Shown here: piece by piece, positions 2,782 to 40,648 of the stretch
How the letters are laid out: each line of letters starts with the position of its first letter
Numbering within the stretch: position 1 is the stretch's first letter
Assembly (NCBI GenBank): GCA_020072845.1
Contig: JAIQGF010000020.1
Span: 1-54,383 of the forward strand
DNA length: 54,383 nucleotides
Origin: Terriglobia bacterium
GTDB taxonomy: Bacteria; Acidobacteriota; Terriglobia; Terriglobales; Acidobacteriaceae
Direction of reading: 5' to 3'
Notes under the pieces: generated by a model
Database searches by the model: none
Seen by the model: the letters and a program-made list of their open reading frames with translations, nothing else
Told to the model about the DNA's origin: nothing
Position numbers and translations under genes: made by a program

Positions 2782-3999
2782 TCACTCGATCTCCCGCACC
2801 GGCCTCTGCATCGCCCCGATGGCAGACATGGCCACCACCGCCAGTCCGGCCAGGGCGAACATCCCCGCAACGCTCCACCCCACCAGTATGCCGGCGGTTG
2901 CCAGGGAGATTGGCATCAAGCCGAACGCCGCCAGCATCAGCACGCTCATCACCCTGCCGCGTACCGCGACCTCAACCCGTTGCTGGATCCACGATTGCAA
3001 CTGCACGTTCACATATCCGCTAATCGCGCCCATGGCCAGCAGCAGCACCGCAATCGACCAGAGCGGTTGCAGGAATCCGATTGCGGTCATACCCATACCC
3101 AACAGCGTGGTGCCACCTAGCAGCAGCTTTCCGCGCCGCTTCGACCTCGCCACCCCCGCCAGCATCATGCCGGCCAGCGCCCCGGCAGCCACGCTCGAGA
3201 TGCACAGCCCGTAGGCCGACGGCGACGCGAACCGGTGCTTGGCCAGGTAAGCAAGCCCGACGCTAAACGGCCCGATGGTGCAGAAGTTGATGACCGCCGC
3301 CACCGCCATCAAAGTGCGCAAGGCAACGTCCTGCTTCACGAATCCCAACCCTTCCGCCACCGATTTCAGGAGGCTGGGCTTCCGGCCGCCAGCCCTTTTC
3401 GACGGGTCCGGAAGGCCGATCAAGGCGCCGATAATGAACAGAAAACTTATAGCGTCCAGCACAAACGCCCACGCCACACCCTTGGCTTTGATCAGGAATC
3501 CGGCCGGGGTCGGTCCCAGGATGCCGGCCAGCAGCGCGGTGCTTTGCGCCACCGAGTTGGCCTCCGGCAACTGTTCACTCTCCACCAGGGAAGGCAGGAA
3601 GGCGGAAGCCGCCGGCATGGCAAACGCGTCGGCCACGCCGAAGGCGAATCCCAAAACGTAGAGGTGCCAGAGGCGAATGTGCAGCGTCCATAACAGCAGC
3701 CCGATTAGGGCTACCGCTGCCGCGCGAGTCCCCGCCGTCGCCATCAACACCTTGCGCGGCGAAGTTCTGTCGGTGATCGCGCCGCCCAGCAGCATGAGCA
3801 GGGCGCGCGGGATGGCCGCCGTCATCAACACGGTGCCCATCGCCAGGCCCGAGCCGGTCAGTTGCAGCACCACCCAGGGCAAGGCCACCAGGTAGAACTG
3901 GTCTCCGGCGATCGAGACGGTGGACCCCATCCACCATTTGCGGAACCAGGGATTCAGGAGCGGATGTCGGGGAGCGGGCAAGGCTGCGGCGGTCGCCAT
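2782..3999 (-). CDS. MFS transporter (drug/siderophore-exporter type)
   Basis: The 405-residue membrane protein has the length and about 12 hydrophobic segments of the major facilitator superfamily. The loop between helices 2 and 3 reads GGAITDRTSPRKVLM, an MFS motif A variant, and overall it resembles the EntS/MFS_3 exporters. It should move small molecules across the inner membrane by proton antiport; the substrate cannot be deduced. AGGAGG stands four bases before the ATG. It is divergent from a TetR-family gene with a palindrome between them, which suggests TetR-controlled efflux. Confidence 0.9.
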   Translation of the reverse strand: MATAAALPAPRHPLLNPWFRKWWMGSTVSIAGDQFYLVALPWVVLQLTGSGLAMGTVLMTAAIPRALLMLLGGAITDRTSPRKVLMATAGTRAAAVALIGLLLWTLHIRLWHLYVLGFAFGVADAFAMPAASAFLPSLVESEQLPEANSVAQSTALLAGILGPTPAGFLIKAKGVAWAFVLDAISFLFIIGALIGLPDPSKRAGGRKPSLLKSVAEGLGFVKQDVALRTLMAVAAVINFCTIGPFSVGLAYLAKHRFASPSAYGLCISSVAAGALAGMMLAGVARSKRRGKLLLGGTTLLGMGMTAIGFLQPLWSIAVLLLAMGAISGYVNVQLQSWIQQRVEVAVRGRVMSVLMLAAFGLMPISLATAGILVGWSVAGMFALAGLAVVAMSAIGAMQRPVREIE

Positions 4000-14047: not shown

Positions 14048-14160
14048 CAAAAGTCAGAATTAAGAAGTCAGAAGTGAGAAGTAAGAAGTGAAAATGAAGT
14101 TGAGATGAGGTGCAACGTGCCTGTACTTTCTGACTTCTGACTTCTGACTTCTTACTCAAT
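14048..14160. repeat. AAGAAGTCAGAAGT inverted-array element
   Basis: The left arm 14049-14098 (AAGTCAGAATTAAGAAGTCA and onward) and the right arm 14119-14160 (TTCTGACTTCTGACTTCTGA and onward) are inverted arrays around a 20-base loop. A one-armed relative is at 15452-15481, and another lies inside the 7389-7587 element. From 14160 to 14680 no gene is convincing. Confidence 0.75.
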
Positions 14161-23557: not shown

Positions 23558-24166
23558 ATGGGCAACGTCCTCGAGTGGCTCCGCGATTTTCGCGACTACG
23601 TGCGCCGGGTGTGGCAGGCGGAATGGCTGCCGCTGTCGCGGGCGGAGGCCATCGGATGGATGCTCTTCTTCCTCTTCTTCCTGTGGTACGCCATCGGCAA
23701 GGAAGGCGGCGATTTCGCGCTGCTGGACTCCGGCAATCTGGTAATCCACGAGGGCGGACACGCGCTGTTCGGCCACTTCGGCAATTTCCTGGGCGTCGCC
23801 GGTGGAACGATTCTGCAACTGCTGGCGCCGCTGCTGCTGGCGCTGGCCTTCCAGGTCCGGCGGCAGGCGGTGGGCTACGCGCTGTTCCTGCTGATCGTGT
23901 TTGAAAACCTGCTCTACGTGGCCAAGTACATGAGCGACGCGCGCGCCCAGGCGATGAGCTACGTCGCCATCGGCGTGGGCGCCATGGAAGGGCTGGAAGA
24001 CCCCATGATGCACGACTGGTACAACCTGTTCTCACGCTTCGGCGTGCTGCCGTACGACACACGCATCGCCGCCGCGGTATTCAAGATCGGGTGGGCGGGC
24101 ATGATCGGCACGGTGCTGTGGTTCGGGTGGCGGTGTTACCGGAGTTGGCGAGCGGGATGGGAGTGA
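23558..24166 (+). CDS. Membrane protein with HEGGH motif, putative zinc metalloprotease-like
   Basis: The 202-residue protein has about four membrane segments (33-46, 80-100, 106-124, 170-190). HEGGH at 64-68 lies in a hydrophobic context, VIHEGGHALFGHFG, as in site-2-type intramembrane metalloproteases. A conserved-looking EDPMMHDWYNLFSRFGVL (147-164) may supply a third metal ligand (His152 or Asp153). It may cleave or process membrane proteins, but the family could equally be a non-proteolytic metal protein. It is a single gene between two repeat elements. Confidence 0.65.
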   Translation: MGNVLEWLRDFRDYVRRVWQAEWLPLSRAEAIGWMLFFLFFLWYAIGKEGGDFALLDSGNLVIHEGGHALFGHFGNFLGVAGGTILQLLAPLLLALAFQVRRQAVGYALFLLIVFENLLYVAKYMSDARAQAMSYVAIGVGAMEGLEDPMMHDWYNLFSRFGVLPYDTRIAAAVFKIGWAGMIGTVLWFGWRCYRSWRAGWE

Positions 24167-24168
24167 GA

Positions 24169-24324
24169 CAGTCGATGGTCGATGGTCGATGGCCCAAGAA
24201 ATGAAGATCAGCCGCGGCCCGACAGATTTGCGATAGAGGGGGTTGGTCGTTAGTCGTTCGCAAATCTCATTGGCCCACCGCTGACGCTAATTGTCTACGG
24301 CGATCGACCATCGACCATCGACGC
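24169..24324. repeat. TCGATGG inverted-array element
   Basis: Left arm 24169-24196 is three to four copies of TCGATGG. Right arm 24301-24324 is CGATCGACCATCGACC, its inverse. The loop is about 100 bases. This word recurs at 30541, 34869-34992, 36612 and inside tgt (about 38000). Confidence 0.8.
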
Positions 24325-24329
24325 TTTGA

Positions 24330-24926
<597 letters not shown>

Positions 24927-30535: not shown

Positions 30536-30672
30536 GATAAAGTCGATGGCCGATGGTCGATGGCCGATGGCCAAAGACCTCAGCGGCTAACGCCGTTTTT
30601 CAGTTTCAAGCTGGGATGGCACGGCTCCTTCCGCTTCGCTCAGCGTCAGGACAAGTTCCGCCGTGTCCCTCC
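30536..30672. repeat. Composite repeat element (copy A)
   Basis: Modules in order: TCGATGG/CCGATGG array, CCTCAGCGGCTAACGCCG hairpin word, GGCACGGCTCCTTCCGCTTC, CGCTCAGCGTC, then AGGACAAGTTCCGCCGTG. The same order is found at 36612-36755. Both copies sit immediately upstream of a leftward gene. Confidence 0.8.
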
Positions 30673-34861: not shown

Positions 34862-34868
34862 TGTTTAC

Positions 34869-34992
34869 CTTGTCGATGGTCGATGGCCCGTGGTCGATGG
34901 CAACCGGGTCCCGACCTGATTCTTCCAAACTTGTCATCGTCGTTGATCGCTCGTCGCTGGCCATCGGCCGTCGACCATCGACCATCGACTTG
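34869..34992. repeat. TCGATGG inverted-array element between secD and secF
   Basis: Left arm 34869-34901 (TCGATGGTCGATGG and onward) and right arm 34957-34992 (GTCGACCATCGACCATCGAC). A 20-base stretch TGGTCGATGGCAACCGGGTC at 34891-34910 is identical to 38039-38058 inside tgt. Confidence 0.85.
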
Positions 34993-36612
34993 CTAAATAC
35001 TCAGCACTTCGCCGCGCTTCAGGTTGTTCAGGTGCGCGTCAAAAATGACGCGCGACACGAACACGGCGGTGAACAGGTTGGCCAGCAGACCGAAGGTCAG
35101 CGTGACCGCGAAACCCTTCACCGGGCCGGTCCCGAAGATAAACAGGATGAAGGCGGAGACGATGGTGGTGACGTGCGTGTCCACAATCGTGATCCAGGCG
35201 CGTGCAAAGCCTTGCTCCACCGCCGAGGGCGCGGTCTTGCCGTTGCGCAGCTCCTCGCGAATGCGTTCGAAGATCAGCACGTTGGAATCCACGCCCATGC
35301 CGACGGTCAAGATTACGCCGGCGATGCCCGGCAAAGTGAGCGTCGCTCCGCTGAAGCCGAGGAATCCGAGCAGGATCACCAGGTTGAACAGGAGCGCAAG
35401 ATCGGCATTGATGCCGGCGACGCGGTAGTACACCAGCATGAAGATCATGACCGCCAACATGCCGATGACCGCGGCGAGCACGCCGTGCTTGATGGAGTCC
35501 GCTCCCAGCGACGGCCCGACGGTGCGCTCTTCCAGATAGCGGATACCGGCCGGCAGCGCGCCGGAGCGCAGCACCATGGCGAGATCCTTCGACTGCTGCT
35601 CGGTGAAGGCGCCGGTGATGCGGCCTTCATCGTGAATCTGTTCCTGGATGGTGGCGACTTCCTGGACCTTGTTGTCGAGCACGACAGCCAACTGCTCGCC
35701 GACGTGCGCGCCGGTGAAGGAGGCGAAGCGGCGCCCGCCTTCGCCGGTCAGCAGGAAGCGGACGGCGGGACGGTTGTTCTCGTCGCGGGTGGGCTCGGCG
35801 GTGCGCAGGTCGCGTCCGGTCACGGCCGAAGCGCGGGTAATGATGTACCAGGCGGTCTGGGTGGCGTCGGCGCCGCGCGCGCCGATGGAGCGGCCCTGCA
35901 TGAGCACGGAATCAGGAGGCAGCACGCCGTTCTTGGAGGCCAGCGCGTCCTGCTCGCTGGGATAAGGCCCGCCCAGCGCCTGGCGGATTTCCAGCATGGC
36001 GGTGGACTGCATGATCTGCTTGACGCGGGCGGGATCGTCCACGCCCGGCAACTGCACCAGAATCTGGTACTGGCCGAGGCCGTGCTCCTCGATCACCGGC
36101 TCGCTGACGCCGAGCTGGTCAATGCGGTTGCGAATGGTCTCGATGGCCTGCGCCACCGAGCGGTTTTTCAGCTCGGCCAGCGATTGCAGCTTCATGGCCA
36201 GCGTCCAGGAGTTTTCGGCGCCCGAGGTGAGGACGTACTCCGGCAACTGATTGCTGACGATGTCTCTCAGGTCGGCGGCCGATTCCGGCGGCACGCCCTT
36301 GATGGCGATGTGGTCGGGAGCATTCTGCGGGTCGGGCTTAGTGATGTCGGTGTAGACGATGCCCTTGGACTTGAGGCTTTCCTTCAGGCGCTCGATACCG
36401 CGGTCGCTGTCGGCGTTGACCGCGTCGTTGACCATGACCTGGAGGATGAGGTGGGTTCCGCCCTTGAGATCGAGCCCGAGTTTGACGCGCTCGAGGACGG
36501 CCGATTTCAGGGCACTGCCGCTCACGCCGCTCGGCAGCCCGAAGATGCCGAACACAAAGACCAGCAGCACGGCAACGATAAACAGGGATTTCCAGAGTAA
36601 CGTCTTATTCAT
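34993..36612 (-). CDS. secD: Protein translocase subunit SecD
   Basis: The 539-residue partner of SecF begins MNKTLLWKSLFIVAVLLVFV. LDLKGGTHLILQV (about 47-59) starts the periplasmic P1 domain. The second half has five membrane helices with the signature VGMGVDSNVLIFERIREELR and conserved prolines. It drives late steps of secretion with SecF and YajC. Length lies between the Bacillus and E. coli forms. It is read leftward between yajC and secF; a composite repeat lies directly before its start. Confidence 0.96.
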   Translation of the reverse strand: MNKTLLWKSLFIVAVLLVFVFGIFGLPSGVSGSALKSAVLERVKLGLDLKGGTHLILQVMVNDAVNADSDRGIERLKESLKSKGIVYTDITKPDPQNAPDHIAIKGVPPESAADLRDIVSNQLPEYVLTSGAENSWTLAMKLQSLAELKNRSVAQAIETIRNRIDQLGVSEPVIEEHGLGQYQILVQLPGVDDPARVKQIMQSTAMLEIRQALGGPYPSEQDALASKNGVLPPDSVLMQGRSIGARGADATQTAWYIITRASAVTGRDLRTAEPTRDENNRPAVRFLLTGEGGRRFASFTGAHVGEQLAVVLDNKVQEVATIQEQIHDEGRITGAFTEQQSKDLAMVLRSGALPAGIRYLEERTVGPSLGADSIKHGVLAAVIGMLAVMIFMLVYYRVAGINADLALLFNLVILLGFLGFSGATLTLPGIAGVILTVGMGVDSNVLIFERIREELRNGKTAPSAVEQGFARAWITIVDTHVTTIVSAFILFIFGTGPVKGFAVTLTFGLLANLFTAVFVSRVIFDAHLNNLKRGEVLSI

Positions 36613-36755
36613 TTGAGTCGATGGTCGGCGGTCGACGGTCGACGGTCGACGGCCAAAAACCTCAGCGGCTAAAGCCGCTTAAACAGTCGCACGAATTCGG
36701 CACGGCTCCTTCTGCTTCGCTTCGCTCAGCCTCAGGACAAGTTCCGCCGTGCCCT
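36613..36755. repeat. Composite repeat element (copy B)
   Basis: Same module order as 30536-30672: a TCGACGG/TCGATGG array, CCTCAGCGGCTAAAGCCG, GGCACGGCTCCTTCTGCTTC, CGCTCAGCCTC, AGGACAAGTTCCGCCGTG. It ends before the yajC stop region. Confidence 0.8.
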
Positions 36756-37374: not shown

Positions 37375-38679
37375 TTATTCTCGCGATGGGGCGATGGTCG
37401 GATCTTCCCTTTGGGCACGAGCAGGGGAGTTCAAATTCTGCGACCGGAGACCAGAAAGAAAACTACTGAATTCCCCAAGTTGTATAGAATGCCGCACCCG
37501 TTTCATGGTGTCAAGGTAGTAAGCCAGATTGTGGATGGAGTTGAGGACTTGTCCCAGCACCTCGCGGGCGGCAAACAGGTGTCGCAAGTAGGCGCGCGAG
37601 TAGCGGGCGCAGACCCGGCAGCCGCAATTGGGGTCGAGCGGGGCCTGGTCGGCGGCATAGCGGGCGCCCTTGATGTTGATCTTCCCTTCGGAGGTAAACA
37701 ACAAGCCGTGGCGGGCGGCGCGCGTGGGATGGACGCAATCCATCATGTCCACGCCCAGGGCGGCGTATTCCACGATCTCCTCCGGGGTACCCACCCCCAT
37801 CAGGTAGCGCGGCTTGTCGGGCGGAAGATGCTCCAGGGTTGACTCTACGATCTCGCGGGTGAGGGCGCGCGGTTCGCCTACGCTCAGGCCGCCGATGGCA
37901 TAGCCGGGAAAGTCCATGTCAACCAGGCGCTGGGCACATTCACGGCGGAGGTCGGGGTAGATGCCGCCCTGGACGATGGCGAAAAGGGCGGGGGAGTCGA
38001 TGGTCGATGGTCCCCTCGGCTGCGCTCGGGACAGGCTCTGGTCGATGGCAACCGGGTCGACGGTCGACGGTCGATGGTCGACGGCAACAGCATTGCCGAT
38101 TGCCGATTGTCGATTGCCGATTTTGCGCCAAGGAACCTCATCCTTGTGCTCTTCCCAATACTGCTTGCACCGTTCCGCCCAGCGCACCGTCAACTCCATC
38201 GACTGGCGGGCGCGCTCGCGGTCGGCGGGGAATTCGGTGCACTCGTCGAAGGCCATGATGAGGTCGGCGCCGAGCGCGATCTGCGACGCGGTCGCGGATT
38301 CCGGCGTGAAGAAGTGCGTCGAGCCGTCCAGATGCGAGCGAAATTGCACGCCCTCGTCGGAGACCTTGCGCATCTCGCTCAAGCTCCACACCTGGAAGCC
38401 GCCGGAATCGGTAAGGATGGCGCGCTCCCAGCTCATGAAGCGATGCAGGCCGCCGAGGGCGCGGATTTGCTCGGCGCCGGGCCGCAGGTAGAGGTGATAG
38501 TTGTTGCCGAGAATGATCTGCGCACCCAGCTCCTCCAGGACGTCCTGGGGTACGGCCTTGACCGTCGCCTGCGTGCCCACCGGCATGAACACGGGGGTCT
38601 CGACCGGCCCGTGGGCGGTTGAAATGCGCGCGCGGCGGGCGGCGCCGGAGCGAGCCGTTACTTCAAAGGAGAAGGGCAT
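37375..38679 (-). CDS. tgt: Queuine tRNA-ribosyltransferase with an in-frame repeat insertion
   Basis: The 434-residue enzyme exchanges guanine 34 for preQ1 in GUN-anticodon tRNAs. Catalytic Asp91 (TDSGGFQ) and Asp314 (DCVHPTR) and the zinc set Cys352, Cys354, Cys357 and His383 are intact. Typical Tgt has about 375 residues. Here residues about 187-229 (RQSAIGNAVAVDHRPSTVDP and onward) have no counterpart, and their DNA (37993-38124) is a composite of the intergenic repeats. The last 25 residues also look repeat-derived. The insert falls before the LFAIVQGG core strand in a loop, so activity may survive. It heads the yajC-secD-secF operon. Confidence 0.95.
   Translation of the reverse strand: MPFSFEVTARSGAARRARISTAHGPVETPVFMPVGTQATVKAVPQDVLEELGAQIILGNNYHLYLRPGAEQIRALGGLHRFMSWERAILTDSGGFQVWSLSEMRKVSDEGVQFRSHLDGSTHFFTPESATASQIALGADLIMAFDECTEFPADRERARQSMELTVRWAERCKQYWEEHKDEVPWRKIGNRQSAIGNAVAVDHRPSTVDPVAIDQSLSRAQPRGPSTIDSPALFAIVQGGIYPDLRRECAQRLVDMDFPGYAIGGLSVGEPRALTREIVESTLEHLPPDKPRYLMGVGTPEEIVEYAALGVDMMDCVHPTRAARHGLLFTSEGKINIKGARYAADQAPLDPNCGCRVCARYSRAYLRHLFAAREVLGQVLNSIHNLAYYLDTMKRVRHSIQLGEFSSFLSGLRSQNLNSPARAQREDPTIAPSRE
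37993..38124. repeat. Composite repeat inside the tgt reading frame
   Basis: Modules: GTCGATGGTCGATGG, a GGCTGCGCTCGGGACAGG unit of the TTCGACT family, TGGTCGATGGCAACCGGGTC (identical to 34891-34910), a CGACGGTCGACGGTCGATGG array and GCCGATTGCCGATTGTCGA. Its length (about 130 bases) keeps the tgt frame open. Confidence 0.85.
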
Positions 38680-38697
38680 GCAAGAGAGGATTGTAAA

Positions 38698-38766
38698 TCG
38701 CCGCTGATGAACGCAGAAAAACGCAGATGAATTTCCCGATCTGCGTCAATCAGCGTTTATCTGCGG
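38698..38766. repeat. AACGCAGA inverted element
   Basis: CGCTGATGAACGCAGAAAAACGCAGATGAA faces GATCTGCGTCAATCAGCGTT and TATCTGCGG. It lies directly between tgt and the thioesterase gene. Confidence 0.7.
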
Positions 38767-38775
38767 CCGGGTTTT

Positions 38776-40530: not shown

Positions 40531-40648
40531 ATCTGTAATTTGCAATTTGTAATTTGTAATTTTTCTGGACGTGAACAAACGTTGTGCCTATCGGCCAGAG
40601 CTTCCGCGGCTTTCAAATTGCAAATTACCAATTACAAATTACAAATGC
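40531..40648. repeat. TTGTAATTTGTAATTT inverted-array element
   Basis: Left arm 40531-40564 (TCTGTAATTTGCAATTTGTA and onward) and right arm 40611-40648 (the inverse, ACAAATTACAAAT type) lie around about 45 bases. Confidence 0.8.

What the first reader, a model, noticed from the sequence alone, without database searches (positions are those of the whole stretch)
37993..38124. Intergenic repeat element inserted in frame inside tgt
Tgt here has about 43 extra residues (187-229) between the WEEHKDEVPW helix and the LFAIVQGG strand. The DNA of the insert is a composite of the TCGATGG, TTCGACT and GCCGATT modules that otherwise sit between genes, and a 20-base stretch is identical to the secD-secF spacer (34891-34910). 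Frame and catalytic residues are kept. It resembles the palindromic elements in Rickettsia genes, but in a probable acidobacterium.
Basis: partly seen in the sequence, partly recalled or inferred. Interest (0 to 1): 0.75.

Follow-up and report, generated by a model that had tools for sequence, protein, structure and literature searches.

The report
Repeat DNA colonises one enzyme loop
In a bacterium of the Acidobacteria, a piece of the scattered seven-letter repeat DNA that usually lies between genes has become part of a tRNA-modifying enzyme, and a number of related bacteria carry different repeats or hairpin sequences at the same point of that enzyme.

Summary
Tgt (window 37375-38679, minus strand) carries about 43 extra residues (187-229) encoded by dispersed repeat DNA: 48 matches besides itself in the genome, against one weak match for an equal flanking stretch. 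The frame and conserved residues are intact. The insert is a low-confidence loop between helix and strand; the rest models as a normal Tgt.

It is not a one-off. The same loop exceeds 30 residues in 16 of 38 measured genomes of this family and in 2 of 89 outside it. The TCGAYGG repeat was found only in this genus (4 of 4 genomes; 0 of 57 others). Other genera carry other sequences there; 12 of 20 tested inserts recur elsewhere in their own genome. Half of the inserts (10 of 20) have a 7-nt period although the heptamer differs. In this genome 9 of 40 other copies examined run through coding-like frames, including ValS, ArgS, SelD, TilS, MetH and a ribonucleotide reductase.

Best reading: tolerated in-frame colonisation of a permissive loop by dispersed heptamer or hairpin repeats. 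It works like Rickettsia palindromic elements but is of another, STRR-like kind. How the repeats move is unknown.

The parts
37375..38679 (-). tgt, tRNA-guanine(34) transglycosylase, 434 aa, intact frame
   Evidence: TIGR00430 482.8 bits over cut-off 306.75; PF01702 504.7 bits
37993..38124 (-). in-frame repeat insert, residues about 187-229 of Tgt (repeat-like DNA 37995-38122)
   Evidence: 48 genome-wide matches besides itself; loop absent in Z. mobilis TGT; mean pLDDT 46-53 in the three blocks 191-220
37995..38012 (+). heptamer array TCGATGG; exact 18-mer also at 24170-24187 and, inverted, at 34973-34990
38011..38039 (+). 29-nt core TCCCCTCGGCTGCGCTCGGGACAGGCTCT between heptamers; with its flanks a composite unit with 12 further copies by the query ranges, two of them in the Ggt and ValS frames
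38039..38058 (+). 20 nt identical to 34891-34910 (spacer between the ORFs read as secD and secF)
38055..38081 (+). heptamer array TCGACGG/TCGATGG
38092..38122 (+). heptamer array GCCGATT/GTCGATT
34864..34997 (.). copy of the same repeat at the secD-secF junction as an inverted pair (arms 34864-34906 and 34955-34997)
24162..24331 (.). further copy as an inverted pair of TCGATGG arrays (arms 24162-24199 and 24294-24331); gene context not examined
36617..36652 (+). heptamer array just upstream of the ORF read as secD, exact 20-mer shared with the insert; no inverted pair
30544..30572 (+). further CGATGGC/TCGATGG array; context not examined

Best explanation
The genome carries many copies of a dispersed repeat built from degenerate seven-base units, some as inverted pairs. 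A composite of these units has become part of the coding sequence of tgt at one permissive helix-to-strand connection, adding about 43 residues that are predicted with low confidence (probably disordered) and leave the rest of the fold alone. Units such as TCGATGG and GCCGATT make no stop codon in any of the six frames when repeated in tandem, so a copy of suitable length is translated as harmless filler. The same loop has been filled in related genera by other repeats or hairpin elements, often built from another heptamer. Shown: repeat identity, open frame, intact predicted fold, genus restriction of the heptamer in the sample, different fillings of the same loop, other genes hit. Inferred: that the fillings are separate gains, that the insert is functionally neutral, and that selection only removes copies that break the frame or the fold. 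Not known: how the repeats move (candidates are trans-mobilisation by Y1/RAYT-like transposases, template switching, or gene conversion between copies, followed by slippage).
For: Dispersal: 48 matches besides itself against one weak match for the flank control. Genus restriction: TCGAYGG pattern in 4 of 4 genomes of the genus, 0 of 57 others. Same-site recurrence: loop over 30 aa in 16 of 38 measured family genomes, 2 of 89 outside. In 12 of 20 genomes tested the insert has at least one further place in its own genome, while the tgt-core control was listed in 18 of 20 genomes, each time at tgt only. Period 7 in 10 of 20 loop cores, against 1 each for periods 5, 6 and 10. Hairpin z of -2.0 or lower in 10 of 30 loops. 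Turnover: G000-G001 nucleotide identity 0.36-0.64 in the three 45-base blocks of the insert, 0.76-0.96 in the others. Tolerance: model mean pLDDT 88.9, low only in the insert and at the C-terminus; TM-score 0.95 (normalised by the target) to Z. mobilis TGT. Other genes: 9 of 40 further copies run through long coding-like frames; seven of these ORFs match Ggt, ValS, ArgS, SelD, TilS, MetH and B12-dependent RNR models. Stop-free heptamers.
Against: Eight of 20 inserts (G003, G008, G014, G016, G017, G021, G029, G036) showed no listed second place in their own genome. One search scored only 15 candidates per genome and its list was cut, so this is partly a detection limit, but some of these loops may be ordinary variable sequence (G016, G017 and G029 had 2-3 matches in all). 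The own insert is not a hairpin, and 20 of 30 loops have z above -2. Half of all possible heptamers are stop-free on both strands, so that property is not special. Separate gains were not tested on a tree. Only the ArgS, ValS and SelD sites were compared with relatives; for Ggt, TilS, MetH, RNR and two poorly identified ORFs the insert status rests on the repeat DNA alone. No movement was observed, and no protein data exist.
Confidence: 0.82

Rival explanations
1. The loop is a selected feature: an RNA hairpin in tgt mRNA (pausing, mRNA stability, autoregulation) is kept while its sequence turns over, as in a structure-constrained site.
For: Strong hairpins in several genera (z -7.9, -7.5, -6.6, -4.9, -4.6 in L017, L023, L011, L016, L030), of several sequence kinds, and a 156-nt hairpin of -106.8 kcal/mol in L071, all at one site.
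Against: The window's own insert has z -1.9 and no inverted arms; 9 of 17 loops over 30 aa have z above -2; 22 of 38 family genomes manage with a loop of 30 aa or less; SelD also shows variable residues at one loop.
Confidence: 0.1
2. An ancestral long linker in this family, expanded locally by replication slippage, with no transfer of repeats from elsewhere.
For: Period-7 arrays are prone to slippage (general knowledge); G000, G001 and G003 share related units in the loop.
Against: The insert contains the 29-nt core and an exact 20-mer found elsewhere in the genome, which slippage at tgt cannot make; 12 of 20 inserts match other places of their own genome; unrelated genes carry the same composite.
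Confidence: 0.05
3. A lineage-specific functional extension of Tgt (for example RNA or partner binding) whose DNA only looks like repeats.
For: The extension is kept in frame in both G000 and G001.
Against: Residues are not conserved between relatives; Pfam and NCBIfam match only TGT-superfamily models; the stretch is modelled at low confidence; the same kinds of peptide (RPSTVD, NRQSAIGN) occur in unrelated enzymes of the genome.
Confidence: 0.02
4. Assembly or binning artefact at the insert.
For: Repeats can mis-assemble; no reads were available.
Against: The frame stays open, and G001, a separate assembly, has an orthologous but diverged insert at the same place.
Confidence: 0.01

Closest known systems
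Rickettsia palindromic elements (RPE); known here from passages of PMC10969869 and PMC3733652; the 2002 RPE paper was not held
   Same: Short dispersed repeats inserted in frame into unrelated genes, adding tens of residues that are presumably tolerated.
   Different: RPEs are described there as palindromes of ~150 bp; the tgt insert is a non-palindromic heptamer composite in Acidobacteriota. A loop filled by different repeats in many genera was not described in the passages read.
Intragenic GTAG/CGTC REPs (PMC3733652, passages read)
   Same: REPs inside ORFs in several species; recB of X. campestris and X. oryzae hit by different REPs at about the same site; Acidobacteria are mentioned there for tyrosine transposases.
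   Different: The repeat in this window has no GTAG tag and a 7-nt period. The cloverleaf-like inserts of G012, G025 and G030 look closer to that kind (by eye).
Degenerate heptanucleotide repeats of the cyanobacterial tRNA-Leu intron P6b loop (PMC3488679, passages; PMC4476775, abstract and one passage) and cyanobacterial STRRs (recalled)
   Same: Seven-nt degenerate units folding into a hairpin at one permissive site, with repeated independent shifts from one repeat class to another.
   Different: That site is in a self-splicing RNA, not in a protein-coding frame; other phylum.
TAACTGA heptamer repeats of Beggiatoaceae (PMC4679880, abstract and one section read)
   Same: Dispersed heptamer direct repeats, mostly intergenic, a few inside ORFs.
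   Different: TAACTGA makes stop codons in one orientation, so in-ORF copies sit mostly at gene ends or in reverse orientation; the heptamers here are open in all six frames and lie inside conserved enzymes.
Coding palindromes of nematomorph mitochondria (PMC6649704, passages read)
   Same: Inverted repeats inside coding sequence, gained and lost between species.
   Different: Long perfect palindromes, thought to be actively maintained, in mitochondria; no heptamer basis was mentioned in the passages read.

Membership tests
Tgt (TIGR00430 / PF01702) | Whole-protein score over the curated cut-off | tested here: met
   482.8 bits over 306.75; 504.7 over 26.3
Tgt (TIGR00430 / PF01702) | Conserved DSGG (D91-G94), D145, D314 and C352/C354/C357/H383 (catalytic and zinc roles recalled) | tested here: met
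   Invariant columns in the 43-sequence alignment
Rickettsia-type palindromic elements | Dispersed repeat lying in frame inside unrelated protein-coding genes | tested here: met
   Tgt plus 9 of 40 further copies in long coding-like frames
Rickettsia-type palindromic elements | Element is a palindrome | tested here: not met
   No inverted pair of 14 nt or more in 37980-38140; fold z -1.9. Some inserts of other genera are hairpins
Rickettsia-type palindromic elements | Sequence relation to RPE families | not tested
   No RPE sequence was compared
Heptanucleotide (STRR-type) repeats | Degenerate 7-nt tandem period | tested here: met
   Period-7 identity 0.52, reached by 0 of 1000 shuffles
Heptanucleotide (STRR-type) repeats | Many dispersed, mostly non-coding copies | tested here: met
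   52 pattern sites, overlaps counted; 31 of 40 examined copies do not run through a coding-like frame by a simple codon score
Heptanucleotide (STRR-type) repeats | Descent from cyanobacterial STRR sequences | not tested
   Likeness of kind only
GTAG REP / RAYT system | GTAG-tagged palindrome | tested here: not met
   No palindrome in the own insert and no GTAG tag seen (sequence)
GTAG REP / RAYT system | Y1/RAYT transposase in the genome, flanked by the repeat | tested here: inconclusive
   9 Y1_Tnp matches in the own genome; their flanks were not examined
Intein or known inserted domain | Recognisable domain inside the insert | tested here: not met
   Only TGT-superfamily models match; no best stretch lies in the insert

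The most novel reading that the evidence does not exclude
Bacteria of this family run a repeat-making process defined by length (7 nt), not by sequence: genera have their own heptamers, grown into arrays and hairpins, and these are repeatedly planted at the same codon window of tgt (and perhaps of selD). One gene's loop would then be a natural landing pad that records successive waves of otherwise unrelated small repeats, and that adds new peptide to enzymes, in any frame, without breaking them.
Probability: 0.3. Interest if true: 0.8.

Novelty: new variant of a known kind. Interest (0 to 1): 0.62.

Why it matters
Repeats inside bacterial genes are known, mostly as scattered cases. Here one loop of a conserved tRNA-modifying enzyme is filled by different repeats or hairpins across one family, which gives a natural series of empty, hairpin and heptamer states at one place. 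It makes testable where new protein segments come from, how much extra sequence an enzyme tolerates, and whether 7-nt repeats arise by a process that sets the length and not the sequence. It also warns annotators that odd insertions in ValS, ArgS, SelD, TilS, MetH and other genes of this genome are repeat DNA.

Tried and rejected
Local slippage only: rejected because the insert holds the 29-nt core and an exact 20-mer found elsewhere. Intein or domain insertion: only TGT-superfamily models match. RNA hairpin as the general cause: the own copy is not a hairpin and 9 of 17 loops over 30 aa have z above -2. ArgS as a second recurrent site: in the comparison only the own genome has the long form (66 residues against 34-57), so recurrence is not a property of every hit gene. 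SelD may be recurrent (G001 has a pattern site inside its selD match), but the DNA of the other SelD loops was not tested. ValS residues 388-425 lie in a loop that varies widely anyway, so its insert borders are unclear. Clustering inserts by shared 11-mers gave 14 clusters of 27 cores, but with one chained cluster of 11 that mixes kinds (partly through a conserved flank left in the L010 core), so it is not a count of families. The pattern search's backwards control was not always zero: G000 1, G002 1, G010 4, G026 1, G037 2. Literature: searches listed no paper on repeats inside tgt or on heptamer repeats of Acidobacteria in the held library; I judged by titles, abstracts' starts and the passages named, and work outside open licences was not searchable.

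Full report
What is there. Tgt is one intact 434-aa frame on the minus strand, 37375-38679. TIGR00430 and PF01702 match it in two stretches, and Z. mobilis TGT residues 192 and 194 bracket query residues 181 and 228. The DNA is a patchwork: TCGATGG and TCGACGG arrays, a 29-nt core, the 20-mer identical to 34891-34910, and a GCCGATT array. The names secD and secF for the neighbouring ORFs are by eye.

More than chance. The insert has 48 matches besides itself at E<=1e-3 in the 4.23-Mb genome, with 40 of 205 first-look candidates scored. The equal-length flank 38125-38256 has itself and one weak match. In 94 kb of this genome 15 arrays of period 7 were found, with 4 of period 6, 5 of period 8 and none for periods 4, 5 and 9-12; three resampled versions gave none. 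Of three further TCGAYGG sites of the window that I searched, two (24162-24331, 34864-34997) are inverted pairs and one (36600-36700) is not; the tgt copy is not, and its fold z is only -1.9 (100 shuffles).

Genus-specific repeat, family-wide site. The pattern TCGAYGGTCGAYGGTCGA occurs in all 4 genomes of the genus (52, 33, 16 and 6 sites, overlaps counted) and in none of 57 other relatives; its backwards control has 0-4 sites per genome. Yet the same Tgt loop is long elsewhere: over 30 residues in 16 of 35 measured family genomes. Three more family genomes drawn, all of one genus, have 21, so 16 of 38. Outside the family it is 2 of 89, namely G059 and G096. Lengths come from aligned loci or from segment coordinates and may be off by a few residues; the genomes are related, so the Fisher p of 8e-9 (on 16 of 35) overstates independence. 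The loop DNA differs between genera. By eye: cloverleaf-like GTAGG elements in G012 and G025 and something similar in G030; heptamer hairpins in G002, G004, G009, G031 and G059; TTTCGAG-type arrays in G013 and part of G032. Named MAGs L047, L071, L087 and L090 also have long, hairpin-rich loops; L087 and L090 are titled Pyrinomonadaceae and Chloracidobacterium, and L047 appears to carry three kinds in one loop. Whether those four recur in their own genomes was not tested.

Are the inserts repeats in their own genomes? Twenty joined inserts were searched in 20 genomes (list cut, 15 candidates scored per genome) and six again in six genomes. In 12 of 20 the own insert has at least one further place: G001, G002, G004, G009, G012, G013, G025, G028, G030, G031, G032, G059. 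In 8 of 20 none was listed. A tgt-core control in the same query was listed in 18 of 20 genomes, each time at tgt only.

A shared period without a shared sequence. Of 20 loop cores of 50 nt or more, 10 have a 7-nt period reached by at most 1 of 1000 letter shuffles; periods 5, 6 and 10 reach that once each, and 4, 8, 9, 11 and 12 never. The ten use about eight different heptamers by eye; G000 and G001 share one, and G013 and G014 may. Half of all possible heptamers (0.504) are stop-free in tandem on both strands; TCGATGG, TCGACGG, GCCGATT, GTTTCGA and GGCTGCA are among them, TAACTGA is not. Since 7 is not a multiple of 3, one frame reads all phases, so such arrays are open in all six frames.

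Other genes. Of 40 further copies examined in this genome, 9 run through long frames with coding-like codon use on both sides, by a simple score trained on five window ORFs. NCBIfam models name seven of these ORFs: over the curated cut-off gamma-glutamyltransferase, ValS, SelD, TilS and B12-dependent ribonucleotide reductase; below it, on ORFs cut by the stretch end, ArgS and MetH. One more matches UvrC/DEDD-exonuclease models below their cut-offs, and one has only hits below the cut-offs. In relatives, the long ArgS form is unique to this genome among those compared, while SelD varies at the same loop in G001, G002, G003, G012, G014, G017 and others; G001 has a TCGACGG pattern site inside its selD match, the DNA of the rest was not tested.

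Structure. The model (mean pLDDT 88.9) puts the insert after helix 154-178 and a helix 184-194, before strand 231-236, at low confidence (block means 53, 51, 46 for 191-220 and 70 for 221-230); the rest matches Z. mobilis TGT (TM-score 0.95 by target). A helix-to-strand turn lies, in a barrel of this type, on the side away from the active site (general knowledge, not measured here).

How it works, most likely. Dispersed heptamer-based repeats spread in these genomes by an unknown route. Copies in genes that break frame or fold are removed (inferred); those that keep the frame and fall in permissive loops persist as filler, and the Tgt loop is the clearest such place. Once a repeat is present, recombination with other copies and slippage can exchange or resize it, which fits the drop in G000-G001 identity inside the insert (0.36-0.64) against 0.76-0.96 outside. 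The genomes hold Y1_Tnp genes (9 matches here; 29 of 37 genomes have at least one), but no link to the repeat was tested.

Known relatives. In-frame repeats are known from Rickettsia and from intragenic REPs, including one gene hit at about the same site by different REPs in two species (PMC3733652, passages; PMC10969869, passages). Heptanucleotide hairpins with repeated class shifts are known from the Nostoc tRNA-Leu intron (PMC3488679, passages; PMC4476775, abstract and one passage). TAACTGA heptamers are mostly intergenic (PMC4679880, abstract and one section). I therefore file this as a new variant of a known kind: what looks new is the recurrence across a family at one enzyme loop and the shared period without shared sequence.

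Noticed in passing
L133 (G000:C11, SelD) and L220-L226: SelD has a loop with different, partly repeat-like residues in several genera, as in Tgt; DNA tested only for G000 and, by one pattern site, G001.
   Followed up: partly
L127 / L189 (G000:C5, ValS): ValS of this genome seems to hold two separate inserts, near residues 223-249 (PESRVPSPESK, by eye a GAGTCCC-type heptamer) and 388-425.
   Followed up: partly
window 14052-14156: Inverted pair of AAGTCAG/CTTCTGA heptamer arrays, a different heptamer family in the same genome.
   Followed up: no
window 40531-40646: Inverted pair of AATTTGT/ACAAATT heptamer arrays; related arrays in L158 at 3245-3276 and 3319-3351.
   Followed up: no
window 38690-38770: Between tgt and the next gene there seems to be another inverted repeat of CGCAGATGAA/ATCTGCG type (by eye).
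   Followed up: no
L048 (MAG Acidobacteria bacterium isolate LL3.bin3): Tgt loop with a short direct duplication (QTQSLFGQTQSLFGIVQGG) at the same place, seen.
   Followed up: no
G036 genome: Many copies of an element like part of the G032 tgt insert (query 313-382), although the G036 tgt loop core shares no 11-mer with it.
   Followed up: no
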